49,547 nucleotides of DNA, taken from Methanoregula sp. (GTDB lineage: Archaea > Halobacteriota > Methanomicrobia > Methanomicrobiales > Methanospirillaceae). The stretch is from NCBI RefSeq assembly GCF_003170075.1, contig NZ_PMZU01000067.1, positions 1-49,547 of the forward strand, read 5' to 3'. This document shows, one piece after another, positions 2,143-31,200 of the stretch (the first letter of the stretch is position 1; each line of letters opens with the position of its first letter). Both the position numbers and the translations under genes were made by a program. A model generated the notes under the pieces. The model searched no databases, was not told the origin of the DNA, and saw only the letters and a program-made list of their open reading frames with translations.

Positions 2143-3381
2143 ATGTCGGAGTACACAGACAACAACATCAGCCCATTGATCGGATCAAAAGCGTTTTTCC
2201 AAACCTTTATTATGGACGATGCCACCTCATCCACGGGGTCGGGGGGAGTACAAACTGCAATTTTGGGGAGTTTTGGGCAGGGAAAATCAACCTTGATGGC
2301 CTGGATGGCTGAATATTCTCGGTATATGCGGGTCGGCTCAAAAGAAAGTTACATTTCTCGTCTGGTTCACCACGGGAATATTTTGAAATACGAGACAAGC
2401 CCAACAACCGTGCTCTGGCGATGCCGAGACTTAGATCTATGGCCGGTGCTGATCCCTGCAAACTGGAATGAACGAATCCCTGACATGCCGGCAAAAGAGC
2501 TGGCGTTGTTTGTCAACGAAAATGATATCGATGACATTTGCTTTTTCTGCTACGACCGAGACCACAAGCCGATCCCTGTACCCAATCTGCCGGCGATCCA
2601 GACGTACACGACGGCCGACGACCTCATCGGAAAGATACACGAGGGTAGCATCAATATTGTTTTGGAACCTCAGAAGTACCGTCTGTCACCTCGGCTTTGC
2701 GGGTTACTCGCCGAAGCGAGAAACGAATTTGATGCTGGGGTCAAACCAGACGAGCGGAAAGACGATTTAGTAGATATCCCAAAACGAGGGCGGGGGCGAC
2801 CTCTCAAAATCAAAGAGCCGAAAGATTATAGCCAGCATGCAATCAAATCGGGGTGCTTCTGGTTCGATGTGACCGCCGCAACGATGGCAATTTTTGGAAA
2901 CAAACCGATAATGATGATCTGGGACGAGGCAGACGATTTTCTCTCGGCTGCAAGTTCCGACGCTCATTGGTGGTTAATCAACATCAATTCGGAATTACAG
3001 CGGGATTTCAGAAAAGCCAATATATCGACGGTGGTTTCCTCTCATGGTTTTGCACTGCTGCATGATTCTGCATACAAAAGGGCAACGCATCGAATTTTGT
3101 TGCCCGGCGTGAAAGCCAGTAAAAACACTATGGTCAGGTACACCCAAATTATCAGCCGATTGCCAAAAGGTCATTTTATCATTGAGATTCAGAACAAGGA
3201 ATTTGGGGTTTGCAAGTTTGGACGGATTCCCTATGTAATCCAATCGAAAATCGACGGTATGAAAAATAGTTTCAGGGCGTTGGATGGAGATCAGAAAGCC
3301 CGAATATACGCGGAATACGAAAAACAATGGAACGGGGAACAGGCCACGGTTAGCAAGTTACCGACGGTGATTGAGGTTTGA
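2143..3381 (+). CDS. P-loop ATPase with AT-hook
   Basis: The 412-residue protein carries a Walker A motif GSFGQGKST at residues 42-50 and a Walker B-like PIMMIWDEADD at about 255-265, so it is a P-loop ATPase. Between them, residues 215-222 (RGRGRPLK) match an AT-hook, a minor-groove DNA-binding motif, flanked by other basic residues. The long insert between the motifs and the WDEAD ending recall packaging- or HerA/FtsK-like element ATPases, but I cannot place it in a named family. It is followed 6 nt later by a 58-codon gene. It diverges from the helicase operon across the origin-like region. A role in DNA segregation, packaging or transfer is inferred. Confidence 0.75.
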   Translation: MSEYTDNNISPLIGSKAFFQTFIMDDATSSTGSGGVQTAILGSFGQGKSTLMAWMAEYSRYMRVGSKESYISRLVHHGNILKYETSPTTVLWRCRDLDLWPVLIPANWNERIPDMPAKELALFVNENDIDDICFFCYDRDHKPIPVPNLPAIQTYTTADDLIGKIHEGSINIVLEPQKYRLSPRLCGLLAEARNEFDAGVKPDERKDDLVDIPKRGRGRPLKIKEPKDYSQHAIKSGCFWFDVTAATMAIFGNKPIMMIWDEADDFLSAASSDAHWWLININSELQRDFRKANISTVVSSHGFALLHDSAYKRATHRILLPGVKASKNTMVRYTQIISRLPKGHFIIEIQNKEFGVCKFGRIPYVIQSKIDGMKNSFRALDGDQKARIYAEYEKQWNGEQATVSKLPTVIEV

Positions 3382-3387
3382 GGGAAC

Positions 3388-3564
3388 ATGAACGATGATG
3401 TCTTAATCGAGCAGGAAGAAATCCTGGTTGATTTTGTAGATATGAGGGAAATCGAAGATCATAAAATTATTTTCATGTTTGTTGGTGGAATGGCAACCGC
3501 TGATGATTTTTTTGCATTTGATACCGCCCGGGCAGAATTGATCAAAAGTGGAAAATATCGGTGA
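3388..3564 (+). CDS. Small acidic unknown protein, 58 aa
   Basis: A 58-codon frame starts 6 nt after the ATPase stop, with an AGGG Shine-Dalgarno. The product begins MNDDVLIEQEEILVDFVDM and continues REIEDHKIIFMFVGGMATAD. It is acidic in its first half with a hydrophobic middle. No family is recognised. It is probably cotranscribed with the ATPase and may partner it. Confidence 0.5.
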   Translation: MNDDVLIEQEEILVDFVDMREIEDHKIIFMFVGGMATADDFFAFDTARAELIKSGKYR

Positions 3565-3636
3565 AATAGAATAGGATACCCACATAGGATACATACCACT
3601 CACATACCCCACTATGTTACCTCTCTCTCCTCTATA

Positions 3637-3766
3637 CTCACATACTCACATACCTATGTGGAGGTATGCAAGGGTCTCTTTTACAAAAGTGTTTAACTTT
3701 TTGTAAAAGTGTTTAACTTTTTTTGTTTGCTTGCATTTTTCCAAAAAAGGTATGTGAGTATGTGAG
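3637..3766. repeat. Origin-like region: perfect inverted repeat enclosing tandem iterons
   Basis: In a 360-bp gap without a gene (3565-3924), an 18-bp sequence CTCACATACTCACATACC (3637-3654) is repeated as its exact reverse complement at 3749-3766. One more base pair (3655 with 3748) extends it to 19. The loop contains two tandem 18-bp copies of AAAAGTGTTTAACTTTTT with a 20-bp period, each itself a small dyad, followed by T-rich DNA. Iterons, AT-rich DNA and a dyad close to a replicative helicase gene are the hallmarks of a plasmid or virus origin. The rest of the gap is rich in CACATA and TATG tracts and shows no convincing coding frame. Confidence 0.5.
3685..3722 (+). repeat. Two tandem 18-bp iterons
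   Basis: AAAAGTGTTTAACTTTTT is present at 3685-3702 and again at 3705-3722, identical, with a period of 20 bp (two helical turns). Each unit is an imperfect dyad (AAAAGT and ACTTTT arms). They are candidate initiator-binding sites. Confidence 0.6.
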
Positions 3767-3780
3767 CACGTCGGAGAATG
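3767..3780 (+). repeat. 14-bp repeat CACGTCGGAGAATG, copy 1
   Basis: CACGTCGGAGAATG directly follows the right arm of the origin-region inverted repeat. An identical copy lies at 4408-4421. Confidence 0.55.
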
Positions 3781-3924
3781 GTATGTTATGCCCTATGTAA
3801 AGAGTATGCGGGTATGTTAGCCGGTCATTTTCCCGTCCCCACGTAGGTATTAAACGTGCGTTCATTCTGATTGACCCCCCCCACCGGAAAATCAAAATTG
3901 TTTTGGGAGGTGTAAATGGTTGAC

Positions 3925-4293
3925 TCAAATGATCAGGCGCGGACTTGTTGGGGCAAGCACCCGGTACGTCAAGGAAACGTGCCACCCCGACTCGTCCCGA
4001 ACTAATTGTGTATTAGTCAAGAGTATATTTTTCGATGGCCACGGTTCTCCTTTTTCGATCCTCATGGGAATTTTACCGATGCACTCCAAAAAAAGAAAGT
4101 TTTCCCCGGCGTGGGTTTGCTTTCCCTGCGGGATAAGCTCGTGTCTAAAATTTGAATCCGCCAATACAGAGCGCGCTTCCCACAAGCGATCAAGGGCGGC
4201 AAGTTGTTCCGCTGACGGCATCAAAGTGGCGCTAACGGATATGTGCGAATCTGTTTGATACCCCGGTACGTGGCTTGTTTTGAAACCGGGCAT
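3925..4293 (-). CDS. Unknown element protein, 122 aa
   Basis: The 122-residue product is not recognised. It starts at an ATG with a strong Shine-Dalgarno (GAGGAGGGG about 7 nt upstream). It contains a helical segment (AEQLAALDRLWEARSVLAD) followed by a beta-rich stretch with WHVSLTYRV near the C-terminus. It lies directly after the stop of the 77-codon frame above. It would be the last gene of the helicase operon, reading toward the origin-like region. Confidence 0.55.
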   Translation of the reverse strand: MPGFKTSHVPGYQTDSHISVSATLMPSAEQLAALDRLWEARSVLADSNFRHELIPQGKQTHAGENFLFLECIGKIPMRIEKGEPWPSKNILLTNTQLVRDESGWHVSLTYRVLAPTSPRLII

Positions 4294-4527
4294 CTATATC
4301 CCCTCCTCACTTTGGCATCCATCCGGCTCCATGCAGATATCGAAACTATATGGGACGATCTGGTGGTATCCCGGGCGAGTTTTGAAAATTCCCCTAAAAA
4401 CAGTGCTCACGTCGGAGAATGTATAGTCATGTAGGGTCTCCGGGAAACTAACCCTACGCGCGTGTGTGTGGAAAAGTTTACCGGGAACTATACATAACCC
4501 TACATTCTGGATCATGGTCGGGCTCAT
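4294..4527 (-). CDS. Possible small protein, 77 aa, in helicase operon
   Basis: The ATG overlaps the TGA of the helicase gene (ATGA at 4524-4527) with AGGTG 7 nt upstream. The stop lies immediately before the ATG of the 122-aa gene. These junctions argue for a real coupled gene. Against it, the composition is unremarkable and the frame is crossed by the 14-bp repeat copy at 4408-4421, so the stretch could instead be regulatory DNA. No family is recognised. Confidence 0.35.
   Translation of the reverse strand: MSPTMIQNVGLCIVPGKLFHTHARRVSFPETLHDYTFSDVSTVFRGIFKTRPGYHQIVPYSFDICMEPDGCQSEEGI
4408..4421 (+). repeat. 14-bp repeat CACGTCGGAGAATG, copy 2
   Basis: Identical to 3767-3780, same orientation, 641 bp away. 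It is preceded by GTGCT, which with the following CAC gives a small GTGCTCAC-type dyad. It may be a protein-binding site shared by the origin region and the operon. Confidence 0.55.
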
Positions 4528-6314
4528 GATGGCACCTGCATTTGCCCGGCTCTGAGCTGGATGTCGCGGTACACGATCCCGGAGGTTTTCCGCTTCTTGG
4601 AGAAACGAGAACTCATATCCCGTCCAAACGTGGTGCTGTTTTTGACCGTCCCGTACCGGGATTTTGTATATGACACGTACTCATCGTATAGTGCAGTTCC
4701 GAGTACCTCGGCGCCTTTCCGCTCTTCTATACAGTCGTGTACAAACCCGGCATACTCATCATCGGCACACCGGTATTCATTCAGGACGATCTTTGCCGTC
4801 TCGCAGAGATCTATGGTGTCCTTCTTTCGGTAATTCTCCCACCCCTGAATGAACCAATTCAGGATCCCGGCTAAGACCGCATCGAACTTATCTTCGATAT
4901 GCGAATCGCGTTCCTCTGGCCGGAAATAGTAATCGAACGGGAGCAACACCAGCCGGTCCCAGAATGCCACGGAATGATCGTTCACGGTGGGAAGTGGGTT
5001 GGTTGATAGCGTCACGACTCCGGAAACGGCGAACTCCTCAATATTGTTTGAATACAGGTTGCGGGCCGATATAAGATCCTTTCCCGATGCAGCCTTCAGG
5101 AAACCGCTATCCAGAACAGTTGTGTCTTTCTGGTGCTGGTCGGAAGGCTTGTTCGGCTCCTGTGCAATAATGAGCCGGGTATTTCGCATTTTAAGCCGTT
5201 CGGGGCTTGTTGTTTTGTTCCCGGTCTCCATGAGCGTGAGCGGGTTGACGTTGACGGAATACCCTCCAAGAATGCGGGAAAAGGTGCGGAATGTGACGGA
5301 CTTGCCGTTCCTGCCGGCACCGTATGCGATAACGATCTTTTCTAGTGGGTTCCCCCCGTCAAGGCAATACCCTAAAACGGTCTGAATGGTCTTTGACAGA
5401 TCCGGATCTTCAGAGGCGATCTTGTGTGCATGATTGATCCAGATTTCCGGTACCGGCTCATCGGGGCGATATTCACATCCGCCTATAAAGGAGCACAAAT
5501 CTTCTTTCCGGTGCTCCCGGAAGGTGATCCCATTTGGGGTAAACTCGATCGTACCGTTCTGTAAATTCAGGATGTGCGGGTTGCTATCAAAATCTTCCGA
5601 TCGTTTTGTGAGCTGGATCGCTGCAAGTGCGACGATGTTATCGATCCCCCGCCGGGTATTGAGTTTTTCAACGTCACCAAGGTATTCAGCGCGATCGCTT
5701 TTCCGTTCGATGTCTCCAAGATCAGCATACAGGGATTTAACAAAGGTCCGGCACCGGTTCTTTATGAGGCTTCTGTCGTCGATTTTCCACACCCTACCGT
5801 TCCAGTAGTGCCACCGGTTTGTACTAGCGTTAAAAACGCACTCCCCGGAGATCTTTTCAACAAAACGATCAGAGGCTGCCAGTTCCGTTAAGCCGACACC
5901 GGGCAGGGCCGCCTGTTCTGCCGCTGCGCGTTCCTGCCGCTTTTTCTTGTCCTGCTGCATTGCATCATACAGTTGATGCACGGCAGGATCCCGGACGGCC
6001 CGTATGAGTGCTTCACGGACAAGGTTCTCGCCCATCAGGTCGAATCCTTTGGGTAGACGTTGGAGTTTATCGAGTGCGGCACATATCTCAATGTGATTCA
6101 TGGAGGCGATCTTTGCGTCAGGATAATCCGGGTGCTGCCATGCATCCGGAGTACCTGTTGGTGTTGGGGGGACCGGGAGAACTGGAGGTCCTGCAGGTAC
6201 CGGCGCCTCCATCATCTCTCGCCGTTTTAGAATCCTGTCAAATTCCGGATCGCATGTTTTCCCGTCGGTCTTTGGATCTGCGAGAGTTGCCCCGGTCGGT
6301 ATGATTTCGCTCAT
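4524..6314 (-). CDS. SF3/P4-type replicative helicase (D5-like)
   Basis: The 596-residue protein matches the C-terminal part of phage/plasmid P4-family primase-helicases. It has Walker A GAGRNGKS at residues 332-339, a Walker B-like RLIIAQE ending at E386, and motif C STNPLPTVNDHSVAFWDR at about 437-454. A C-terminal segment (about 500-596) likely forms the usual winged helix. The N-terminal 130 residues are Pro-rich and charged (APVPAGPPVLPVPPTPTG), and no archaeo-eukaryotic primase active site is visible. It is therefore probably a helicase-only initiator. Its ATG overlaps the stop of the 63-codon gene upstream. It is the main replication protein of the element and points at the origin-like repeats. 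Confidence 0.85.
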   Translation of the reverse strand: MSEIIPTGATLADPKTDGKTCDPEFDRILKRREMMEAPVPAGPPVLPVPPTPTGTPDAWQHPDYPDAKIASMNHIEICAALDKLQRLPKGFDLMGENLVREALIRAVRDPAVHQLYDAMQQDKKKRQERAAAEQAALPGVGLTELAASDRFVEKISGECVFNASTNRWHYWNGRVWKIDDRSLIKNRCRTFVKSLYADLGDIERKSDRAEYLGDVEKLNTRRGIDNIVALAAIQLTKRSEDFDSNPHILNLQNGTIEFTPNGITFREHRKEDLCSFIGGCEYRPDEPVPEIWINHAHKIASEDPDLSKTIQTVLGYCLDGGNPLEKIVIAYGAGRNGKSVTFRTFSRILGGYSVNVNPLTLMETGNKTTSPERLKMRNTRLIIAQEPNKPSDQHQKDTTVLDSGFLKAASGKDLISARNLYSNNIEEFAVSGVVTLSTNPLPTVNDHSVAFWDRLVLLPFDYYFRPEERDSHIEDKFDAVLAGILNWFIQGWENYRKKDTIDLCETAKIVLNEYRCADDEYAGFVHDCIEERKGAEVLGTALYDEYVSYTKSRYGTVKNSTTFGRDMSSRFSKKRKTSGIVYRDIQLRAGQMQVPS

Positions 6315-8217: not shown

Positions 8218-9444
8218 CTATTTTTGACCCCCCGCATTTTCAAGGATCACATCGGCGACGAGGGATTTGAGCGCCTCCCTAGTAAGACCCGCCCGGATAA
8301 TACCCATCGCACCGTCGCTGCCCTCAGATGAATCCAAGAGGTTCCGCCCCTGTTCGACCGCTGCCAATCTCTCCTGAAGTTCCTGGATGGTCTGTTCCTG
8401 TTTGGAGATTAGATCGGCCTGTACTCGGATATCGTGCTTAACCCTACCAGAGTCCTTGATCGTCAAAGCCTGCTGGCATAGTTGGTACTTTTCGGCGAGT
8501 GCTCTTTCTGTTGTATTCTTATACGTATTGCCATATTGATCGACGTGGCCTAGGAATAGTTCTGCATAGTCTGGCCCGATAACCGATGCCACACGATCAC
8601 GGTTCCAAGCCCGGAGCCGATGTACTGTCAATTCATTGCGTCCCGTGCTACTATCCCTCCCGAACAACCCGGCCTTTTTCAATCCCCGATGCCACGCCCG
8701 ATAAATTACCGTCAGCGCAAACGGAAAGATCCTGTCGTCTTTTCCCTCCTTTCTTTTTATCTTCATTGAGTTACCGCGTTCCCCGGCCTGCCGTATGTAT
8801 TCCTCCCGGACTTTGAACCAAGCCCGAAGGCTCTCATACGCTTCGTCTGTGATAAAAACGGTTCTGGGTTCTGCCGTCTTTGTTTTCCTGATAAAAATGC
8901 TGACTGGTCGCGTATCATCATGGATATCTGATATATTGGTGGTAAGTATTTCCCCGACCCGCGCACCGGATGACGCCAAGACTAATGTCAATGCCTGCAA
9001 CCTGATATCAAGAAACGGCAATAGAGCCTGTAGTTTCTCATAATCGAAAAACTCGAACCTCGTTTGTGGCCGTACCTTCCGGGGCATTACGCGGCGGATA
9101 TTCCCCTTTTCCTTTTCCGATAGGGACACGTCGTTTTGTTTGAGCCATTCCCGAGCGCCGGCCACACGAAGCGAGATACTTTTTGGGGGCATCTCCGCAT
9201 CTTGCATCGCCTTGATATAAACGATAATATCCTTTGATGGGTTCCGCTTCTCGGATAAGTACCGCCGGGATAATTCGTCATATTCCTCAAATTCCTGTTC
9301 TGTGCATTTCCTCCCGGCCCGGTGTTTCCCATAGACCGCCGAGAGTAACCCGATAATCCCAACCCGGTACGCGTTGCCGGTCCCTCTGGTTCTACAGCCG
9401 GCCACGAACTCTTTAAGAGAAACAACGTCCTGATCTTCTACCAT
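8218..9444 (-). CDS. Tyrosine recombinase / integrase
   Basis: The 408-residue protein has the catalytic set of tyrosine recombinases: R162 in SSGARVGE, K189 in RKTKT, H275-x-x-R278 (HRLR), H300 in LGH and a Tyr at 308 (or 304) in QYGNTYKN. The N-terminal 120 residues form a SAM-like core-binding domain. A C-terminal coiled coil (about 335-370, KQEQTIQELQERLAAVEQ) could mediate multimer contacts. It would integrate and excise the element. Its N-terminal 75 residues are clearly related to the stub at 38024-38269. It lies at the right edge of the element, next to the host gene at 9507. Confidence 0.92.
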   Translation of the reverse strand: MVEDQDVVSLKEFVAGCRTRGTGNAYRVGIIGLLSAVYGKHRAGRKCTEQEFEEYDELSRRYLSEKRNPSKDIIVYIKAMQDAEMPPKSISLRVAGAREWLKQNDVSLSEKEKGNIRRVMPRKVRPQTRFEFFDYEKLQALLPFLDIRLQALTLVLASSGARVGEILTTNISDIHDDTRPVSIFIRKTKTAEPRTVFITDEAYESLRAWFKVREEYIRQAGERGNSMKIKRKEGKDDRIFPFALTVIYRAWHRGLKKAGLFGRDSSTGRNELTVHRLRAWNRDRVASVIGPDYAELFLGHVDQYGNTYKNTTERALAEKYQLCQQALTIKDSGRVKHDIRVQADLISKQEQTIQELQERLAAVEQGRNLLDSSEGSDGAMGIIRAGLTREALKSLVADVILENAGGQK

Positions 9445-18788: not shown

Positions 18789-19209
18789 ATAAACACCTTG
18801 TGAACCGGTGTGCGGGTATGGGTAAAAAGTCTTTTGAAGTGTAATCTGTGCGAAGTCTCCGGCTTTGGTGTGCCGGGGCTGGCCGCGGTTACGAAAACCA
18901 GGAAACAACTACTATTCATGTTTTACTATTCATGGTTTTAAAGCCGCTTTTTCAATGTATACAAATTGATTTTTAGAAACGGAACGGGATTTTATGGCCG
19001 GACAACAGGAACCCATGCAGAACCAAGTGAATATACCCTGGTGGAGTAACAGGAATACATCATCAAGAAAGGGCCTATAAAAATAGTATTCATAAATAGT
19101 GATGTACAAATATATACCAGAAAGGGTATATGCCGCCGTTTCACACGCGTATATATCGTCATGCGGCGCCAAAAATAATGAAGGATCAACGAGGGAGCGA
19201 CAACAATCC
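18789..19209. other. Intergenic region upstream of giant TPR gene
   Basis: The 420-bp gap contains a direct repeat of TACTATTCATG (at about 18909 and 18925). It also has a 28-codon plus-strand frame at 18994-19080 without a good start signal, and the TATA region of the giant gene. No RNA gene is recognised. Confidence 0.4.
19107..19132 (+). promoter_or_regulatory. TATA region with overlapping dyad, giant TPR gene
   Basis: CAAATATATACC (19107-19118) is a good archaeal TATA box. Together with GGTATATG (19125-19132) it forms an inverted repeat with a 6-bp spacer, 7 of 8 positions pairing, so a regulator could bind over it. Transcription would start near 19140. This puts the ATG at 19099 outside the message and supports the ATG at 19210. 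Confidence 0.5.
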
Positions 19210-22200
19210 ATGAGCAGGAGAGATGCTGAAGCACTGATGCGGCAGGGCATTGAACTCTATGATCTTGGCAGATTCCAGGAAGCTGTGGTCATGTTTGACC
19301 GGGCGCTCACCCTCTTCCCGAAATTACCCAAAGCCCATTACTTCAAAGGTATCGCACTGTATGACCTCGGTAAATACGATGCAGCGGTCGAATCCTACGA
19401 CAATGCGCTGACGCTTGACCCATCCGATATTAATGCGTGGTACAACAAGGCCGCGACTCTTGCACAGGTCGGCAGGAACCGGGAGGCACTCGCTACCTGC
19501 GAACGGCTGATCGCTCTCAAGTACGACAACTCCGAGGCTTGGATCCTCAAGGGAATCGCCCTCTATGAACTTGGGCAGTATCAGGACGCCATATCGGCAT
19601 ACGATCATGCGCTTACCATCGATCCCAGCCATGCAAAGGTCTATTATAACAAAGGCATCGCACTTGCCGATCTCAGCCGGCATGAGGAAGCCATTGTCGC
19701 GTACGGGATGGCGATCGAGATTGTCCCCGAATATTCAAAGGCTTTTTACAATATGGGGATCTCCCTCTACGAGATCGGAAGATATGACGAAGCCCTCGGC
19801 GCCTTTGAAAAGGCACACACTCTTGATCCCTCCGATGCGTGGGTCTGGTATTATCGTTCATTTATTCTCGCAAAACAGGAACGGTATGCCGAAGCGGCCG
19901 AAGCGGCCGGGACATTTCTTAATACCGAACCCGACCACGCGGACATCTGGGTGATAAAGGGGATCGCCCAGTACAAGGAAGGAAAATTTGCCGATGCTGT
20001 AGTATCGCTGGACAACGCAATTTCGCAGAACCCCCTCGTTGCGGATGCCTGGCTCTATAAGGGTTTCTCCCAGTTTGAGCTGGCACGGTACGAGGATGCC
20101 ACGTATGCTCTGGACAAAGCAGCGGAGATGAACCCGACAAATACAAGGATCTTCTTTTTCCGGGGCAAGGCATATCAGCACCTGAGCCGGTTCCGCGAGG
20201 CCGTGGCGGATTTTGACCGGGCAATCGCTGCCGAGCCGGATACTATTGATGCGGTGTACAGTCGGGGTGTCTCCTGCATCTACCTGAGCCGGTACGAGGA
20301 GGCACTTGAGGCATTTACCCGTATTCTCGCCACACAGGGGAATCATGCCGGTGCCTCCTACTTTAAGGGAATTGTCCTTTCACGGCTCGGGAGGCAGACA
20401 GAGGCGATCGAGTCCTTTGAGCATACCCTCTCTGTCGATCCCGGGTGTGCCTCGGCCGCATACCAGATCGGCATATCTTATGCAAGCCTCGGACGCTTCA
20501 GCGAAGCCGTCTCTGCCTATGACCGGGCGCTTAAGATCCGGCCAGATTATTCGGACGCCGTATACCACAAGGGTTTTGCCCTGGCCAAACTGGGAAACAG
20601 CGAGGATGCCATCCGGGAATTTGACAAGGCCTTAAAGGATAATCCGGGCAATGCACAGGCATACCACCAGAAAGGCCAGCTTCTGGCAAAGACCGGCAGA
20701 TATGAGGAAGCCCTGGACTCGCTCAACAAGAGTATCGCCCTCAAGCCAGACAATGCTCAGGCTTGGTACGACAAAGGTAGTGCCCTTTTAAAAGCTGAAC
20801 AGTTACAGCCCGCGATCGAGGCGTTTGATCAGGCAATCGGGATCTACCCCAACTACGTCAAAGCATATTTCAACAAGGGCCTGGCCCTCGTAAAAGAGGG
20901 GGAACTGGACGAGGCACTCCGTGCATTTGACCAGGCCGTAGCGATCGATCCCACCCATACACTTGCATTTTATCACCGGGGTGCAACGCTCTTCAAAAAA
21001 GAGCGGTATGCCGATGCCGTTGCTGCCTACGATGCCGTGCTCGCCCTCGCCCCGAAGAATACGACCGCCCTCTATGAAAAAGGGATCGCTCTCACGCATC
21101 TTGGGCGGTTCAAGGATGCTGTCACCGCATTTGAAGCGGCAGTCGAGCAGAATCCAGGTCTTGCCGATGCCTGGCTCTATAAGGGGATCTGCCATGTCCA
21201 CCTTGGTGCCTCTGATGATGCGATTTCGTCGTTTGACAAGGTAATTGGCCTTAATCCAAAGAATACGGAGGCCATGGTCCGCAAGGGGATGGTACTGGTC
21301 ACCCTGGGCCGGTACGACGAGGCGATCACCATCTTTAACCGCGCCCTTGAGGGCACCCCACGGGATGTCTGGGCTTGGTACTACAAAGGCATCTCTCTAG
21401 CCGAACTTTCCCGGTTTGAAGAGGCAATCAGGTCGTACGAGCGGGTGCTTGAGATCAACCACCGGTGCACCCGTGCATTCTACGAGAAGGGCAATGCCCT
21501 TGCCCGCCTCGGCAAACCGCTAGAAGCGATTATCTCGTACGATCAGGCACTGGAGATCGAGCCCGATAATCAAAAAACCCTTTACCAGAAGGGGATCGCC
21601 CTTGCGCAGCGCGAACGGTACGATGACGCGATCAGGACCTTTGAGCGGATGCTGGTGCTTGAACCGGATAACCCGCACGCGCTCTATTATCTCGGTATCG
21701 CATATGCCGGCCGGGAACGGTACGATGAGGCAATAGGGGCGTTTGAACGATCCCTCAAACATGACCCGGCCAATGCCCTTACCCATCATTATTTGGGGAT
21801 CTCGCTTGGCCAGTGCGAGAGGTACGACGATGCAATCCGGGCATTTTCCGATGCACTAGCTCTTGACGCCTCCAATGCTTCGACATACTATTACCAGGGT
21901 ATCGCGTATCTTCAGTCCCGGAAGTATGAGGAGGCCCTCGCGGCACTCACCACATCAGTGTCGATGAATCCCTCACTTGTCGGGGCGTTCACGTACCAGG
22001 GCATCGCTCTTGCCCGGCTCGGACGACACGACGAAGCAATTTTGGCGCTGAACCGCAGCCTCGCTGCGAATCCATCTCATATGGAGGCGCTGGTCTGCCG
22101 CGGCGAATCGCTCATGGTGCTCCAGCGATATGCGGAAGCGGTGGAAACCTTTGATCGCATCCTTTCCTTAAACCCGAATCTTGTCGATATCTGGATGCAG

Positions 22201-25200
22201 AAAGGAGCCGCACTCGACAAGCTCGTAAAAAAGCAGGATGCACTTGCCGCGTATACCAAGGTGCTGGAGATAGATCCGAACAATGCAGATGGCTGGGTGA
22301 AAAAAGGCATTCTGCTTTCGGATCTGGGCAAGATTTCCGAAGCGGTTACGGCATTCAATAAAGCCCTTGACCTCAATCCCGCGCTTGTCGATATCTGGAT
22401 GCGGAAAGGAGACGCCCTCAATGTCCTCGGGCGGACAGAGGATGCAGCGGATGCATATGTACAGGCTCTCAACCTGAATCCCGATCAGGAAGATGGCTGG
22501 ATCAAAGATGGCAGGGCTCTCTTTGACCTGGGGAGGTATCAGGATGCCATCGATGCCTTCGACAACGCGATCGCCTTAAACCAGCGGAGTACCGGGGCTT
22601 TCCTTTACAAGGGACTCGCCCTTGAAAAGATCAATCGGATAAAAGAAGCGATCCAGGTCTTTGAGGTTCTTCTGGAGATCGACCCCCACAACAGCGACGC
22701 CCAGTACCATATGGGTCTTGCCCTTGCAAACTCCGGCCGGCAAAAAGAGGCATTAGTCTCCTTTGAAGCAGCGATCAAAGAACGGGAATCCTTTGCCCCT
22801 GCGTGGTACAATAAAGGAAAGAGTCTCCTCGGTCTCGGACAGTACCAGGAAGCTATTACTGCGTTTGACCGGGCGCTTGAGATAGAACCCGGTTACACCG
22901 AGGCCTTTTACTACCGGGGATTTGCGCTCTCAAAACTCGGGCGATATAAGGAGGCCATCGACGCACTCGACAGAAATCTTGTAAAGGACACCACAAATTC
23001 TCCCGGATATTACTTCAAAGGTATTGCCCTTTCAAAGTTGGGGAGGTACCAGGAAGCGCTTGACGCGTTTGACCGGGCTTTGATCTATGACCCGGAAAAT
23101 GCACTGGTCTATTACCAGAAAGGACGGGCGTTAGATGGCCTAGACCGGCACCAGGATGCCGTTACCGCGTTTGAGAAAACTCTTGCGCTCAAACCAAAAT
23201 ACACTGAGGCACGGATGCGTAAGGGCATCTCACTCTATAATCTTGGCAGGTTTGCCGAAGCGCTCAGGGATTTCGACCGGACCATTACAGAGAACCCCCA
23301 CAACTTCCATGCATGGTACCAGAAGGGCCGTGCGCTCTTTGACTTAAGCAACTACAACGAAGCCATCGACGCTTACGACCACGCGCTGGATGTGGAGTCC
23401 AACTACCCGGACGCCCATTACCACAAGGGACTCGCTCTCTACGAACTGGGGAGATATGAGGAAGCAATTCTCTCCTTTGACCAGGCACTTGAGAACGATC
23501 CTCATCTTGACAGTGCCCTTTTCCATCGTGGTGCCTCGCTCCTGAAACTTGAACGCTACCGCGAGGCAACACAGGCTTTCAATCAGACACTCGTCCTCCT
23601 CCCCAAGTACGCTCCCGCTCATCATTTCAGGGGTGTCGCACTCGCCGCACAGGGCCTGTACCAGGATTCCATAGATGCGTATGACCGTGCACTTGAATGC
23701 GATCCAAAAAGCGCAGAATCTGCGCTCAACAAGGCTATGTCACTGCACAATCTGGGGCAGGAGGAGGATGCGCTTGCTGCCGCAGGCAAGGCTATAGAGA
23801 TCCGGTCAGATTTTGCCGAAGCATGGAGATATAAGGGACTTATCCTGTTCCATATGGGAAGGTACCCGGAGGTTCTTGAAGCGCTGGACCAGGCTCTTGC
23901 CTGCGATCCGGGAAATGCGCAGCTCTATTACCAGAAAGGCCGGGCCTTCGATGGCCTTGCCCGACATGAGGAAGCGATCCTTGCGTATGATACTGCGCTC
24001 TCCACCCAGCCCGACTGCATTCAGGCGCGGATGCACAAAGGAGAGGCGCTCTCAACGCTGGGCAGGTTCCGCGATGCAGTCGGGGAATTCAAAAAAGTCC
24101 TTGGGACACATCCCGATAATGCCGATGCGTGGTTCCAGAGAGGCCGTGCACTCTTTGACCTTGGAGATTATACTGAAGTTATCGATGCCTGTGACCATGC
24201 GCTCAAACTAAAAGCATCCTATACCGAAGCACACCAGTATAAAGGTCTCGCGCTGTATGAACTGGGCCGGTATGAGGATGCAATCAAGTCCTTTGATAAG
24301 GCAATAAGCATCGATTCACGTCTCGACCGAGCCTTGTACCATCGTGGGGCAGCGCTTTTAAAACTCGAACGTTACCGCGATGCGATTGAGGCGTTTGACC
24401 GGGCATTAGTTCTCGTACCAAACTATGCCACCGCTCATCATCTCAAGGGTGTCGCACTTGCAGCACAGGGATTGTACCAGGAATCTATTCTCTCTTTTGA
24501 GAGAGCACTCCAGTTCGATCCAAAGAGTGCAGAATCTGCGCTTAACAAGGCCATATCGCTGCATAATCTGGGTCAGGAGGAGGATGCCATCCAGGCTTCG
24601 GAAATAGCCATAGAGATCCGGCCGGATTTTGCCGAGGCATGGTATTACAAAGGTGTTGCCCTCTCAACTCTTGGGCGATATGCAGATGCAGTGCCGGCCT
24701 TCTCCCGGTCACTTGAAATTGACAGTACCGATACACATGCCTGGTTCGACATGGGGCTTGACCTGATCCAGCTCTCGCGTAACGAGGAGGCCGTAGCAGC
24801 CTTTGACCATGTTCTTGGCCTGCTTGCAGATTATCCTCAAGCACACTATCATAAAGGGCGGGCCCTTGCTGCGATGGGTAAAAACGAAGATGCTGTTGTC
24901 GCATTTGATCACGCACTGGAGATCACCCCCAAGGATGCGCCCCTTCTTTCAGCTAAAGGTCTGGCCCTTGAAGCATTAAAACACTTCAAGGAGGCTGCCG
25001 CCGTTTTTGAATCTGCTTGTGCGGAAGATCCCGGGTCTGCAGATAATTTCTATCACCTTGGCCTTGCATATGTCGAACTGCAACGGGATGAAAAAGCGGT
25101 CAGTGCCTTTGCAAAAACCCTCAAGATCAGCCCGGACAATACCGATGCGCTGGAGCAGGCGGGACTTGCGCTCGCCCGACTGGAAAAATACGAGGATGCG

Positions 25201-28200
25201 ATCGATGTCTTTGACCGGTGCATCAGGCAGGGCCGGGAAAGCGCCCGTATCCAGTACGAGAAAGGCTGCGCGTATTACGCCCTCAAAAAATATGAGGAAG
25301 CGATCCCTTCCTTTGACCGTGCGATCGAACTGGACAGCAACCATATCGGTGCACTGGTCAAAAAAGGGCAGGCGCTCTCTGAACTTCACCGCTACGATGA
25401 TGCCCTTACCTTCTTTGACCGGGTAATAGCGCTCGATCCTGAAAATGCAATTGCCCATTTTGCCATGGGGACTGCGTTCACGCGGCTTTCCCGGTACGAG
25501 GATGCCGTGATCGCGCTCGATCGCGCCCTTGAATATGACGGCGGCAATGCCCGGATACATGCGTGCAAGGGATACGCCCTCTACCGACTCAACCGTTTCA
25601 AGGAAGCCGCCGAATCATTTGCAAAGGCGCAAAAACGCCAGTCTAAAGATGCCTTTACCCTGCTTTACCGGGGAAAATCCCTCCTGCACAACGAGCAGTG
25701 GGAGGAGGGCATTGCAGCGTTTGACAAGCTGCTGGCCCTTGACGGGAAGAACGCGGCTGCCTGGTACTATAAAGGCATCGCGTACTCCCACCTTGCGCTT
25801 CACGATGAAGCGCAGGATGCATTCGAACAGGCGCTTGCAATCGACGAAAATTGTGCGGCAGGATGGTACCAGAAAGGACTGGTGCTCTTTGAACGGGAAC
25901 GCTTTGACGAGTCGCTGCCGGCGTTCGAGCGCGCACTGGTGATCGCCCCCGGTGTTCAGGACTACGCATTCAGGAAGGCGCTTGCCCTCTTTATGCTGGA
26001 GCGGTACCAGGAGTCCTCCAATATCTTTGATCTGGCACTAACGCTGGGCCCGGAGACGTCCGTCATCCAGTATTACCGGGGCCGGGCACTCATGGAGATC
26101 AAAGATTTTCCAAAGGCACTCGATGCGCTCAACCAGGCGCTCGCCCTCGACCCGGAGAACTCATTTATCTGGCTTGCAAAAGGTGAAGTCCTGTTCCACG
26201 AAAATGATGGCGCTGCAGCGGTATCTGCCTTTGACCAGGCTCTTTTGCTTGACCCGAAATCCGTTGAGGCCGCATTCTATAAAGGTGAATCCCTCGCGTT
26301 GCAGGGCAATGACGAAGAGGCAGTCCATGCGTACGATCTCGCCCTTGGCCTCGATCCATCATACCCCGAAGCCGCTTACAGGAAAGGGCTGGTGTTGTTC
26401 CGGCTGAAGAATTATGCCGGGGCTGTTGAGGCCTGCGATCAGGCAATCCAGTTTGTGCCCGAACACGCACACGCGCACTACGAGAGGGGACTGGCTCTTT
26501 TTGCTCTCGGGAAATATGAAAAAGCGATACGATCCTTTAAGCATGCCCTTGAACATGACCCCTCATTAAAGGATGCGCTTTTCCAGTCCGGGCTGGCGTA
26601 TGCCGCTATGAGCAGGTACACGCAGGCAGTCACCTCATTTGACAAACTGCTGGAACTTGAACCGCAGAACGCGGAGGCGCTGTACCACAAGGGGCGCATG
26701 CTCGCAAAACTCAGGAAAACCGATGAGTCACTGAGCGTGCTCGATGCATCCCTCAACATCGAGAACAACGTTGCCGATGTCTGGCTTCTCAAGGGGAGTG
26801 TGCTTCTTGATCTGGAGAAACTGGAGAGTGCACTGGAAGCCTTCGATCGTGCCCTTGCCCTGACCCCGGATAACATTACTGCCTGTTACCGTAAGGGAAA
26901 GACCTTTGTCGGGCTTCGCAATTATCCGGATGCGATTCGCTGCTTTGACCGGGTCATTGCTGCCGATCCCGGCTGCGCACCGGCCTGGTTCCGGAAAGGC
27001 AGTTCTCTCTTATCAGGTGGTGATCTCAAAGGCGCAATAGAGGCACTTACAAAAGCCCTCGAACTTAAACCCGATAATGCAAACGGGTGGTATGACCGGG
27101 CCGTTGCACTCGCAGGTCTTGAGAGGTTCGAAGAGGCAATCCCCTCCTATGACCGGGCGCTTGCCCTGAATCCGAAGTACGCCAGCGCTTATTACGATAA
27201 GGGTACTGCGCTTGCCCGTCTCGGCCGTGACCGGCAGGCAATCGACGCCTTCGAAATGGCCTCTTCGATCGATCCGAACTTCTCTTTTGCTTATTTCGAA
27301 AAGGGGCTGGCACTTGCTCGGCTCTCAAAAAACAAGGATGCGATAGCTGCCTTTGATGCAGCGATCGCCATCAATGCATCCAGTGCGCCGGCATTCCTGA
27401 ACAAGGGGCACGCCCTTGTAAATCTCAAAAAATTCGGCGAAGCCGTTGTTGCATTTGATTCTGCCATCAAATTGGATCCGTCAGACTACAATGCATGGTT
27501 TGCAAAGGGCTGTGCTCATTCCCAACTCAGGCAGTACGATGACGCGGTTGCTGCCTTTGATCGTGCACTTAGCATCGACAAAAACCAGTACCTGGCATAT
27601 CACGAAAAAGGTGTGGCGCTTGCGCGACTCGGCCAGTACGAGGATGCAGTCACAGCACTCTCTGAGGCCATCTCTCTTGATGACAAGAAACCGGAGACCC
27701 ATTATGAGAAAGGCTGTGCGCTGTTCGAGTTGGGGCACGACAAGGAGGCTGTCACCGCGTTTGGCCGGGTTCTTGAGCTGGACGCCACGTTTGCTGATGC
27801 TGCCTATATTTTGGGTCTTGCTCTGGAACACCTCGGCCGATACGCTGACGCGATAACGGCATTTGATGGTATGCTCTCCCATGCACCGGATCATTTCGGG
27901 ACCTGGTACCACCGTGGCCTTGCGTCGGCGCAGATCGGAAAAGACGATGATGCAGTACAGGCCTTTGAGAAAGCCCGCCAGATCGAGCCTCACGACATTC
28001 CTCTGCTATTCTCTGAAGGAAAGGCATGGTACCGTCTGGAACAGTATGAGGATGCGCTCCATCTCTTTGACATTGCACTTGGGAAGGAACCGGGCAATGG
28101 CGAGATCCTTTTTGAGAAAGGAAAGACCCTTGCCATTCTGGATCGGCATGACGAAGCACAGGAAATCTTCCGTCTTGCCTTTACCCAGCTCGCTGACAAC

Positions 28201-31200
28201 TACGAACCTGCTTATCTCCGGGCCCAGTCGCTGGTCGTGCTCGAACGGTACGAGGAAGCCGACATGGCCTTTGACGCTGCGCTGTCGCTTAACCCCGATA
28301 ACCCTGATATCTTGTTCAAAAAAGGCGGAGCGCTTATGCATACCGGCCATTACGAGGCGGCAATCGCGGCGTATGACCGGGCAATTGCACTCCGGCCTGA
28401 TGATCCCGGGGTGCATCTGGAGCGGGGCCGGGCTTTTGCTGCCCTCAAGAAGTACGAAGACGCCATCGGTTCGTTTGACCGGGTGCTTGAGATTAAGCCA
28501 TCGGATCCAACTGCCAGTTTCGAACGTGGGAGAGCGCTCTTTTATATCGAAAAATACGAAGAAGCGCTTGCGGCGGTTGATGTTGGTCTTGATGGCGATC
28601 CGAAAAACACTGATGCCCTGTATTTCCGTGCAGCTTCACTTGCTGCTCTGGAACACTACACAGAGGCCGCAGAATCGTTCGAGCGCCTGCTGGTGTACAC
28701 CCCGGAGGATGCCGAAACCTGGTACGAGCAGGGTTGCGTTCTTGCCCGGCTCCGGCACTTCGAGGACGCCATCGCAGCATTCGACCGTGCCCTCAACTTA
28801 AATCCGGAGCATTTCGAAGCACAGTTCCAGAAAGCCCGCTCGTTTGACCTGCTGGGACAGTACAGCGAGGCAATTGAGAGTTATTCAGAGGCCCTCGCCA
28901 TCCGGCCTTTGGATACAAAGACGCTCTGTTACAAGGGGGTCGCGCTTTCACGGAGCGGGCGTTCTGAAGATGCAGTAAAAGCATTTGACGCCGCGCTGGA
29001 GATTGATCCGGTCTTTGCCGATGCACTCTTTGAGAAAGGCAGGGCACTTGTTACGCTGGGTATGTTCCGCGAGGCGGTCAAGACCTTTGACAAGACACTG
29101 CTTATCGACAAGAATTATACCGGGGTCTATTTCTATAAAGGACTTGCTCTTGCAGATCTGGGAAGGCATGACGATGCGATCCTCGCGTTTAACAAGGCCA
29201 TTGATCTCGATGCCGGTAACACTGATGCATTCTATCACAAAGGAATCTCCCTTGCTGCAACCGGTAAACTCGATGACGCGATTGAGGCATTTGATCATGT
29301 GATCCAGTCCACTCCGGATTCAGTCCCCGGATGGCTCCACCGGGGGATGGTGCTCTACGATCTCGGGAAATACAACGACGCCATCGAATCATATGGAAAA
29401 ACGCTGGAAATTGATCCGGCCAATGCAGATGCGTGGTACCTGAAGGGCCGTGCAATCCAGGCTCTCAACAACTTTGGTGATGCGGTTGAGGCATTCAACA
29501 GGGCGCTCGAAACAAAGCCCGATTTCACGGACGCGCATTACTACAAGGGCCGGACGCTCTTTGAACTGGGCAAGTACAACGAGGCTGTTCTCTCATATGA
29601 CAACGCCATTGCCCTTCGCCCTAAGCACGATGAAGCGCTGTACTACAAAGGAATGGCGCTCCTGCGACTCCTGAGGCCCGAGGATGCGGCCACCACCTTC
29701 GATCTTGCGCTCCGGCTCCGCCCGAACTACGCGTATATCTGGACCGGTAAAGGGATGGCCCTTGCTGCCCTTGACCGTCACGAGGACGCGATCACCTGTT
29801 ATTCCAAAGCCATCGGCCTTGACAAGAAGGATGCCCGTGCGTATTACCAGTCCGGGCTCTCGCTTTCAGCCTTGAGCCGGTACCAGGATGCGATAAAAAA
29901 CTTCGATGCGGCGCTTGTACAGCACCCGAAATATGCCCCGGCATTCTATGCAAAAGGGCGGGCCTTGTGCGGAGTCGCCATGTACCAGGAAGCGATCAAC
30001 GCATTCGACCGGGCCCTCTCCGAACATGCCGACTATCCCGAAGCGTGGCTCCACCGGGGGATCGCAGAGGCAAACCTGGACCGGTACGAGGATGCACTGG
30101 ACTGCTATAACCACGCCCTTGCAATCAACGCCTCATACGCTCCGGCGCTTCTCAATCTGGGCCGGGCATTTATTCACCTGGGCAGGACCGGCGAAGCTCT
30201 GGATGCGTTTGAAAAAGTCCTTGCCCTCCAGCCGGAATCAGCGGAGGCGTATTATTACAAGGGGCTTGCCCACGTAAAGAAAGAGCAGGACGATGAGGCG
30301 GTTGATGCGTTCAACCATGCGATCGCCATCAACCGGCAGTATGCAGAAGCGTACCATTACAAAGGTGTTGTGCTTGCCCGCCACGAGCAGTATGAGGAAG
30401 CGGTAGCCTCGTTTGATGCAGCATTGCGGATCAAAAGTGATTATCCTGATGCCCTGTACGAGAAGGGTAGATCCCTGTTCCATCTGGGGAAATACAAGGA
30501 TGCTATTGCGGTCTTTGACCAGGCATTGTCTGCCAACCCGGGATATGCCGACGCAATCTTCCAGAAAGGGCGGGCCTATATTGAACTCCGGAATACCGAC
30601 GGGGCAATCAGGGCATTCGACCGGGCGCTGGAGATAAATCCGTCCTGCTATCAGGCACACTACTGGAAAGCCCGTACCTTAAATGACGAGGGCAGTTATG
30701 ATGAAGCCATCACGGAGTACGACCGTGCCATTGCCATAAAACCGGATTCTGCCGAACTTTACCGGGATCGCGGCCTTGCCTATGCAGCGATTGAACAGTA
30801 CCGCGATGCCATCAAGTCATACGACCGGGCACTGGAACTCGATCCCCATGGCGCCGACTCTTTCTCCCACAAGGGAGCATCCTTGGCCGAGCTTGGCATG
30901 TACCGTGATGCGCTCGAATCGTTTGAGAAAGCACTGGAAAAGAACCCAGAACTTGCAACCGCCTGGTTTGGCAAAGGAAACGCTCTCTACGATATCGGGA
31001 AGTTTTCTGAAGCAAGAGATGCGTATGACGAAGGTCTCAAACTGGACCCGGAGAATGCAGTCGGCTGGACCCGGAGGGGAATGTCCTTTGCCGGCCTGAA
31101 GAACCATAAGGCCGCGATTGAATCCTATGACCGGGCCATTGCAATCGATCCCTCGTTCTCGATTGCATACTTTACCAAGGGGAGTGCCTTTGAGGCGCTC

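What the first reader, a model, noticed from the sequence alone, without database searches (positions are those of the whole stretch)
3565..3924. Likely replication origin of the element
An exact 18-bp inverted repeat (3637-3654 / 3749-3766) encloses two identical 18-bp iterons with 20-bp period, followed by T-rich DNA. It lies at the point where the helicase operon and the ATPase operon end facing one another. This combination is typical of plasmid and viral origins and not explained by any gene.
Basis: partly seen in the sequence, partly recalled or inferred. Interest (0 to 1): 0.5.

Follow-up and report, generated by a model that had tools for sequence, protein, structure and literature searches.

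The report
Archaeal mobile-element replication origin, paired dyads
A short stretch of non-coding DNA in a methane-making archaeon looks like a place where an integrated virus- or plasmid-like element starts copying itself, using paired docking sites for a DNA-unwinding enzyme, in a design seen in other mobile elements.

Summary
It is the longest close inverted repeat in the window; 60 shuffles reached at most 14 bp. Origin-type function is the best reading, but the iteron-like words are those in the arms; the 20-bp repeats look like the core. A second, weaker dyad (B, 4416-4508) sits 16 bp past the D5/SF3 helicase stop, where relatives keep theirs; two relatives share B's iterons, core and flank. 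Of 68 helicase loci (window included), 42 have a dyad of score 12 or more at the helicase 3' end, against 0 of 68 coding and 3 of 61 downstream controls; 27 of 68, the window's B among them, do not exceed all their shuffles. In relatives, iterons covary with the helicase's C-terminal domain more than with its motor domain. The required pRN1 'stem-loop' region passes the same doublet test. So this looks like a P4/PICI/pRN1-type helicase-origin module in a methanogen, with a second, displaced, near-perfect dyad (A) of other iterons. Whether A fires, helps B, or serves another initiator is open. No replication was tested.

The parts
3565..3924 (.). Region A: non-coding DNA between the ends of the ATPase operon and the helicase operon
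3637..3655 (-). Dyad A left arm: two tandem 8-bp repeats (TATGTGAG read on the minus strand)
3748..3766 (+). Dyad A right arm: two tandem 8-bp repeats (TATGTGAG)
3599..3607 (-). Outlying exact GTATGTGAG copy, same polarity as the left arm
3812..3820 (+). Outlying copy with one mismatch (GTATGTTAG), same polarity as the right arm
3685..3722 (.). A/T-rich core: 18-bp unit repeated at 20-bp period; melting region by inference
3767..3780 (+). 14-bp word CACGTCGGAGAATG beside dyad A; identical copy at B
4408..4421 (+). Second copy of the 14-bp word, at the outer edge of dyad B; holds CTCCGACG (minus strand), which of 69 loci is found within 300 bp past the helicase stop only in the window, L098 and L099
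4416..4508 (-). Dyad B, starting 16 bp past the helicase stop: arms with two 9-bp words at 10-bp period (ATGTAGGGT, ATGTATAGT); position of the origin dyad in relatives; its score alone is not above shuffles
4472..4480 (-). TAAACTTTT core of dyad B, shared only with L098 and L099 among 69 loci
4524..6314 (-). D5-type SF3 helicase, 596 aa; presumed initiator. A C-terminal winged helix is inferred from the family profile, not seen in this protein's own Pfam hits
   Evidence: Pfam D5_N 3.2e-17; family profile matches RFX winged-helix chains, RFX in 2 of 13 members
2143..3381 (+). P-loop ATPase, 412 aa, phrog_22963, weak HerA-like signal in the family profile
3388..3564 (+). 58-aa ORF after the ATPase; codon pattern unlike the other genes tested, reality uncertain
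3925..4293 (-). 122-aa ORF between dyads A and B; no relative found in the other 231 genomes searched
4294..4527 (-). 77-aa ORF overlapping the helicase stop (ATGA) and running through dyad B; an ORF is placed alike in L099's element
8218..9444 (-). Tyrosine integrase, last element gene before the chromosomal part

Best explanation
The element carries a helicase-origin module of the kind used by P4-like elements, PICIs and pRN plasmids. In the model, the C-terminal winged-helix domain of the D5/SF3 helicase binds tandem 8-10 bp iterons placed in inverted orientation around an A/T-rich core, so that two helicase rings load facing each other, melt the core and start replication. Dyad B, just past the helicase gene, is the helicase's own origin by homology. 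Dyad A, the reported feature, has the same architecture in more perfect form 758 bp past the helicase stop and shares an origin-flank word with B, so it is most likely a second initiator-binding or origin site of the same element. Shown by sequence: both dyads, their form, recurrence in relatives, and covariation of iterons with the helicase C-terminus in relatives. Inferred: binding, ring loading, melting, firing, and A's exact role.
For: A: exact 19-bp dyad beyond any of 60 shuffles; the only four-copy doublet dyad in the window. Relatives: of 68 loci (window included) 42 helicase 3' zones hold a dyad of score 12 or more, 0 of 68 same-length coding stretches and 3 of 61 downstream stretches do; strict doublet dyads in 33 of 71 zones (39.7 kb) against 4 hits in 370 kb elsewhere, A being one of those 4. 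31 of the 42 have a tandem doublet in the arm, against 8.3 expected from shuffled arms. Iteron similarity follows the C-terminal domain with the motor domain held constant (partial r 0.68, 16 loci; 0.51, 34 loci); with near-identical loci collapsed 0.49 (11 loci) and 0.34 (28 loci); with the loop also held constant 0.66 (16 loci), while the loop follows the motor domain (0.74). B: canonical distance; nearest arms are L099 and L098; TAAACTTTT, and CTCCGACG 106-111 bp past the stop, occur only in these three of 69. The C-terminal part of the family profile matches RFX winged-helix chains. pRN1: a 100-bp region 3' of its SF3 helicase gene is required, and alone restores replication when moved (passages of PMC4234260); its arms pass the doublet test. 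A shares a 14-bp word with B.
Against: B's dyad alone is not above shuffles (score 10, shuffle maximum 11). 27 of 68 loci, the window's B among them, do not exceed all shuffles. A is not at the canonical place, no other locus has a doublet dyad there in the flanks held, and A's iterons match no relative's arm well (best 0.39, L032), so A need not be bound by this helicase. B's two relatives are only 23-24% identical to the window in the C-terminal domain, so the B assignment rests on DNA motifs. The covariation has exceptions: L040 and L042 are 73% alike in the C-terminal domain but 0.37 in iterons, L037 and L082 share iterons (0.84) at 51%. Permutation values ignore shared ancestry. The C-terminal domain of the window protein itself gave no Pfam hit and no usable model. 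Nothing was tested experimentally.
Confidence: 0.66

Rival explanations
1. A is the origin, or the relic of the origin, of a different initiator: either one encoded on the missing left part of the element, or a former helicase replaced when the present helicase-B cassette came in.
For: A's iterons match neither B nor the relatives of this helicase well. Iterons change together with the helicase C-terminus among close relatives. The element is cut off at contig position 1.
Against: A carries the 14-bp word found at B. No other D5 helicase was scored in this genome at E up to 1e-20, though only 5 of 11 first-look candidates were scored, and A's arm occurs nowhere else in it at up to 3 mismatches.
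Confidence: 0.2
2. A is a site of the neighbouring ATPase: a packaging or partition site at the end of the ATPase operon.
For: A lies directly after the ATPase operon; the ATPase family has a weak HerA-like signal. In L029 a degenerate 9-bp A/T-rich array (4.2 copies, 75% match) overlaps the 3' end of the ATPase gene.
Against: ATPase relatives were found in two other genomes of 232 searched, the own one included; in both, repeats of the origin type lie at the helicase 3' end (L030; L028), and in L030 no doublet dyad lies near the ATPase. L029 was not put through the doublet test.
Confidence: 0.08
3. A is a transcriptional structure: a terminator between converging operons or a repressor operator.
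For: It sits between converging genes and its core is T-rich. The strand could fold strongly (z -10).
Against: A terminator needs neither tandem doublets nor inverted iterons. No promoter-like excess lies nearby, though that scan covers bacterial promoters only. Dyads at helicase 3' ends recur across the order.
Confidence: 0.04
4. A is a miniature transposon bounded by terminal inverted repeats.
For: 130 bp with exact terminal repeats.
Against: Single copy in its genome by DNA similarity and by arm pattern. In 232 genomes, the own one included, the arm pattern with one mismatch recurs once elsewhere, as a single arm. I saw no target-site duplication by eye.
Confidence: 0.02

Closest known systems
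pRN1/pRN2 plasmid origin (Sulfolobus), 100-bp 'stem-loop' 3' of the orf904 prim-pol/SF3 helicase gene
   Same: Position past the SF3 helicase gene; about 100-bp dyad with A/T-rich middle; arms of about 20 bp. By sequence the pRN1 arms are two tandem 9-bp repeats that pass the doublet test; the pRN2 arms read that way but do not pass it.
   Different: One dyad, 54-61 bp past the gene; here the clearest dyad is 758 bp away and a second one lies at the canonical place. The authors treat it as a stem-loop without iterons, and report a stem change that was tolerated only when the symmetry was restored (passages of PMC4234260), which speaks for pairing between the arms.
PICI/SaPI rep-ori
   Same: Two sets of iterons flank an A/T-rich region immediately 3' of the initiator gene (passages of PMC6092414); [quoted passage not shown]
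   Different: Bacterial phage satellites; no helper dependence or PICI gene set was looked for here; two dyads here.
SCCmec Cch2 helicase and its putative origin
   Same: Helicase with a Primase_Cterm domain, often annotated D5_N, whose C-terminal domain binds a site with iterons downstream of its gene (passages of PMC7581432).
   Different: Three iterons (AAGTG) in one binding site; bacterial cassette.
Phage P4 alpha protein with ori and crr
   Same: Helicase with a winged helix binding repeats at the origin (passage of PMC4234260); P4 needs two separate DNA sites (recalled), which A plus B might mirror.
   Different: Alpha has a bacterial-type primase fused; none was recognised in the window helicase. 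The layout of ori and crr was not compared by sequence.

Membership tests
SF3/D5-helicase origin module (P4/PICI/pRN1 kind) | D5-type SF3 helicase encoded beside the site | tested here: met
   Pfam D5_N 3.2e-17; PHROG primase/helicase profiles to 8.9e-69
SF3/D5-helicase origin module (P4/PICI/pRN1 kind) | Oppositely oriented iteron sets around an A/T-rich core | tested here: met
   Met for A. For B visible, but its dyad is not above shuffles
SF3/D5-helicase origin module (P4/PICI/pRN1 kind) | Site immediately 3' of the helicase gene | tested here: inconclusive
   Met for B (16 bp), not met for A (758 bp)
SF3/D5-helicase origin module (P4/PICI/pRN1 kind) | C-terminal winged-helix domain that recognises the iterons | tested here: inconclusive
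   Family profile matches RFX winged helix, E 2.9e-4; RFX in 2 of 13 members, not in the window protein; iteron/C-terminus covariation in relatives, with exceptions; single-sequence model of the window domain too poor to use, pLDDT 50; binding not tested
SF3/D5-helicase origin module (P4/PICI/pRN1 kind) | Site required in cis for replication | not testable with these tools
   Needs a replication assay
PICI (phage-inducible chromosomal island) | Helper-phage induction, Stl/AlpA-type control, phage interference genes | not tested
   Left part of the element is missing from the contig
Orc1/Cdc6-type archaeal chromosomal origin | ORB motifs beside an orc1/cdc6 gene | not tested
   No ORB scan was made; no orc1/cdc6 family was hit by the ten ORFs scanned

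The most novel reading that the evidence does not exclude
Origins of SF3/D5-helicase elements in archaea, and perhaps of their bacterial relatives, are one class: tandem 8-10 bp iteron pairs, mirror-placed around an A/T core, read by the helicase's own C-terminal winged helix and exchanged with it as a cassette that resets replication specificity while motor domain and core stay. The pRN1 'stem-loop' belongs to this class and works as iterons rather than as a folded hairpin. The present element is a two-origin case carrying two specificities at once. (Lowered from 0.35 in my draft, because a published compensatory change in the pRN1 stem, speaks for pairing between arms and my draft had left it out.)
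Probability: 0.3. Interest if true: 0.72.

Novelty: new variant of a known kind. Interest (0 to 1): 0.52.

Why it matters
It gives a concrete, testable origin for a methanogen mobile element and a simple search rule (doublet dyad at the 3' end of a D5 helicase) that found candidate origins in many relatives. It suggests that a disputed archaeal origin, pRN1 (stem-loop or rolling-circle origin), may be an iteron origin of the PICI kind. The pairing of iteron words with helicase C-terminal domains gives natural pairs for reading a recognition code. Compact self-specified origins could also serve as vectors for methanogens.

Tried and rejected
Miniature transposon: single copy. Close relatives of the helicase or ATPase in viral contigs, and of the helicase in genome contigs: none confirmed. 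Exact arm-and-flank pattern in viral contigs: none. ATPase in the phage collection: none. Distant helicase matches in phages (890 records) and plasmids (365 records) were sampled only six times. GC skew: uninformative for a truncated element. Relatives of the 122-aa ORF: none beyond the own genome in 232. A second dyad in the nearest relatives: L141 has a 16-bp inverted repeat 1.1 kb past the helicase, but it lies inside an ORF (2406-3230) and is no doublet; rejected. Structure prediction of the window's C-terminal part alone was too poor to use. A motif ACACGCG at first seemed a shared core; it is in only 6 of the loci and was dropped.

Rows dropped before counts: the loci are the matches that were returned as loci or that I fetched, not every match listed (for example G096 and G218 were not fetched), and the lists themselves were capped. 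16 loci had no D5 domain at E 1e-10 and were dropped. 95 hits, window included, were reduced to 71 by identical 200-base ends; 3 of 71 were too short. The correlation used 34 of 71 loci: the 33 doublet loci plus L044, added by hand; choosing loci by doublets conditions that result. The far-downstream control was possible for 61 of 68. Outside the order I scanned 12 loci that one search returned from a longer list of matches: 6 of 12 exceeded 40 shuffles, one of them 640 bp inside the open frame; of 6 bacterial records 1 did (Lactobacillus phage CL2); pRN1 and pRN2 both did.

Full report
What is there. The window is positions 1-49547 of an 84,663-base contig of a methanogen genome (MCR alpha is present; contig length). 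Roughly the first 9.4 kb are an integrated element cut off at contig position 1: a P-loop ATPase (2143-3381, +), a D5/SF3 helicase (4524-6314, -) and a tyrosine integrase (8218-9444, -); its exact ends were not mapped. The finding lies between the converging ATPase and helicase operons.

The exact inverted repeat is 19 bp, 3637-3655 and 3748-3766, and is the longest within 300 bp in the whole window; 60 shuffles gave at most 14 bp. Each arm is two tandem 8-bp repeats. The word GTATGTGAG occurs five times exactly, always minus-strand on the left and plus-strand on the right; with one mismatch the window total of 12 is not unusual (6 of 100 shuffles reach it). All six TATGTNAG words of the window are here. 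Between the arms is a 20-bp tandem repeat, with 22-26% G+C over 3676-3750.

Relatives show where such dyads sit. I collected D5 helicase loci from the same order, oriented them with a profile and kept 71 non-identical 3' ends, the window's included. In 42 of 68 evaluable loci the zone at the helicase 3' end has an inverted repeat of score 12 or more; none of 68 same-length stretches inside the coding region and 3 of 61 further downstream do. 41 of 68 exceed all of 50 shuffles; 27 do not, among them the window's B. For the 42, the median span is 104.5 bp and the median distance of the first arm from the stop is 14.5 bp. In several relatives the dyad lies inside a 3' extension of the helicase reading frame, for example L030, L032, L114, L122 and L126. 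A strict test, four copies of a 7-base word as two tandem pairs in opposite orientation with at most two mismatches, is met in 33 of 71 helicase 3' zones (39.7 kb) and four times in 370 kb elsewhere; dyad A is one of these four and the only hit in the window. Of the 42 dyads, 31 have a tandem doublet in the arm, against 8.3 expected from shuffled arms. A hairpin would need no doublet; a protein-binding array would.

Iterons covary with the helicase's C-terminal domain. In 16 close relatives the motor domain is nearly constant in many pairs, but the last hundred residues and the iterons differ. L040 and L041 are 99% identical in the motor domain and 46% in the C-terminal domain, with different iterons (0.26); L041 and L043 share C-terminal domain (80%) and iteron words (0.79). 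Partial correlation of iteron with C-terminal similarity, motor domain held constant, is 0.68 (16 loci) and 0.51 (34 loci), each at the smallest p that 5,000 permutations allow, 0.0002. With near-identical loci collapsed it is 0.49 (11 loci, p 0.0024) and 0.34 (28 loci, p 0.0002). It is not only neighbourhood: the loop after the left arm follows the motor domain (partial 0.74), and iteron against C-terminus stays at 0.66 with the loop held constant; but the loop also has a weaker link to the C-terminus (0.38, p 0.005). There are exceptions: L040 and L042 are 73% alike in the C-terminal domain but only 0.37 in iterons, and L037 and L082 share iterons (0.84) at 51%. The permutations ignore ancestry, so the p values are optimistic. 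The C-terminal part of the family profile matches the RFX winged-helix domain (1dp7, E 2.9e-4; 8zjr, E 4.6e-4), and the whole profile matches a 'DNA primase' of known structure, 7ola, which I recall, untested, to be from SaPI5. Pfam's RFX model hits 2 of 13 family members, not the window protein.

The window has a second dyad at the expected place. Dyad B, 4416-4508, begins 16 bp past the helicase stop, spans 93 bp and has arms built of ATGTAGGGT and ATGTATAGT at 10-bp period. Its score alone is not above shuffles (10 against a maximum of 11). But its closest arms among relatives are those of L099 (0.60) and L098 (0.48), and of 69 loci only these two share with it TAAACTTTT in the 3' zone and CTCCGACG, 106-111 bp past the stop. 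Their C-terminal domains are also among the closest to the window's, at only 23-24% identity. B is therefore the likely cognate origin of this helicase.

What A is. A has the family architecture in near-perfect form but lies 758 bp past the stop, where no other locus has a doublet dyad in the flanks held (63 of 69 loci, window included, hold 900 bp or more). Its iterons match no relative's arm well. It shares with B the 14-base word CACGTCGGAGAATG, two exact copies in the window, which contains the CTCCGACG flank of the B subfamily; loose matches to that word (three mismatches) are no commoner than chance. I read A as a second initiator or origin site of the same element, as a helper of B or a second origin; P4 with ori and crr is a recalled precedent for two sites. 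The main rival is a site for another or a former initiator.

Link to a tested origin. In pRN1 a 100-bp region 3' of the SF3 helicase gene is required and, alone, restores replication when moved elsewhere; the authors add that they have no direct evidence that replication starts there (passages of PMC4234260; deletions also in passages of PMC3869888). Both papers treat it as a stem-loop. The first states that pRN1 lacks the iteron structure, and reports one stem change that was tolerated only when a second change restored the symmetry, which speaks for pairing between the arms, though symmetric protein sites would also be restored by it. The second does not use the word 'iteron'. By sequence the pRN1 arms are ATGTCCATA-GTGTCCAAC and the mirror image, that is two 9-bp repeats, and a slightly wider form of the strict test run over the whole record picks out only this place; pRN2's arms read GGACCGATA-GGACAGGAA but do not pass the test. 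PICI origins are described as two iteron sets around an A/T-rich region 3' of the initiator gene (passages of PMC6092414), and the C-terminal domain of a D5-related helicase has been shown to bind such a site in SCCmec (passages of PMC7581432). Outside the order the picture is mixed: 6 of 12 loci and 1 of 6 bacterial records exceed shuffles.

What is known and what is new. The kind is known: an SF3 helicase with an adjacent origin of inverted iterons. New here, as far as my searches show (open-licence papers only), are its spread in methanogen elements, the iteron/C-terminus covariation there, the reading of pRN1 as doublet iterons, and an element with two dyads of different iterons. I saw listings from these searches and passages of five papers.

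Noticed in passing
window 19099-31449 (+): A single 4,116-aa ORF made largely of tetratricopeptide repeats, in the chromosomal part.
   Followed up: partly
window 3767-3780 and 4408-4421: A 14-bp direct repeat, 641 bp apart, links dyads A and B, but lies differently relative to the arms in the two; how it arose is unexplained.
   Followed up: partly
window 4294-4527 (-); L141 1449-1634: A small ORF overlaps the helicase stop by ATGA and runs through the origin dyad in the window and in L099's element; an ATGA at the helicase stop occurs in 26 loci, the window included, of the 69 with a stop in view.
   Followed up: partly
G000 contigs C22, C39, C60, C64: Four further stretches of the same genome match the N-terminal part of the L011 helicase protein, suggesting several other mobile elements.
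   Followed up: no
L028 13093-13449 (G053:C2, 37.5-kb contig): A variant origin past a D5 helicase: five tandem 21-bp units plus four further copies in both orientations, next to a 20-bp A/T-rich tandem repeat.
   Followed up: partly
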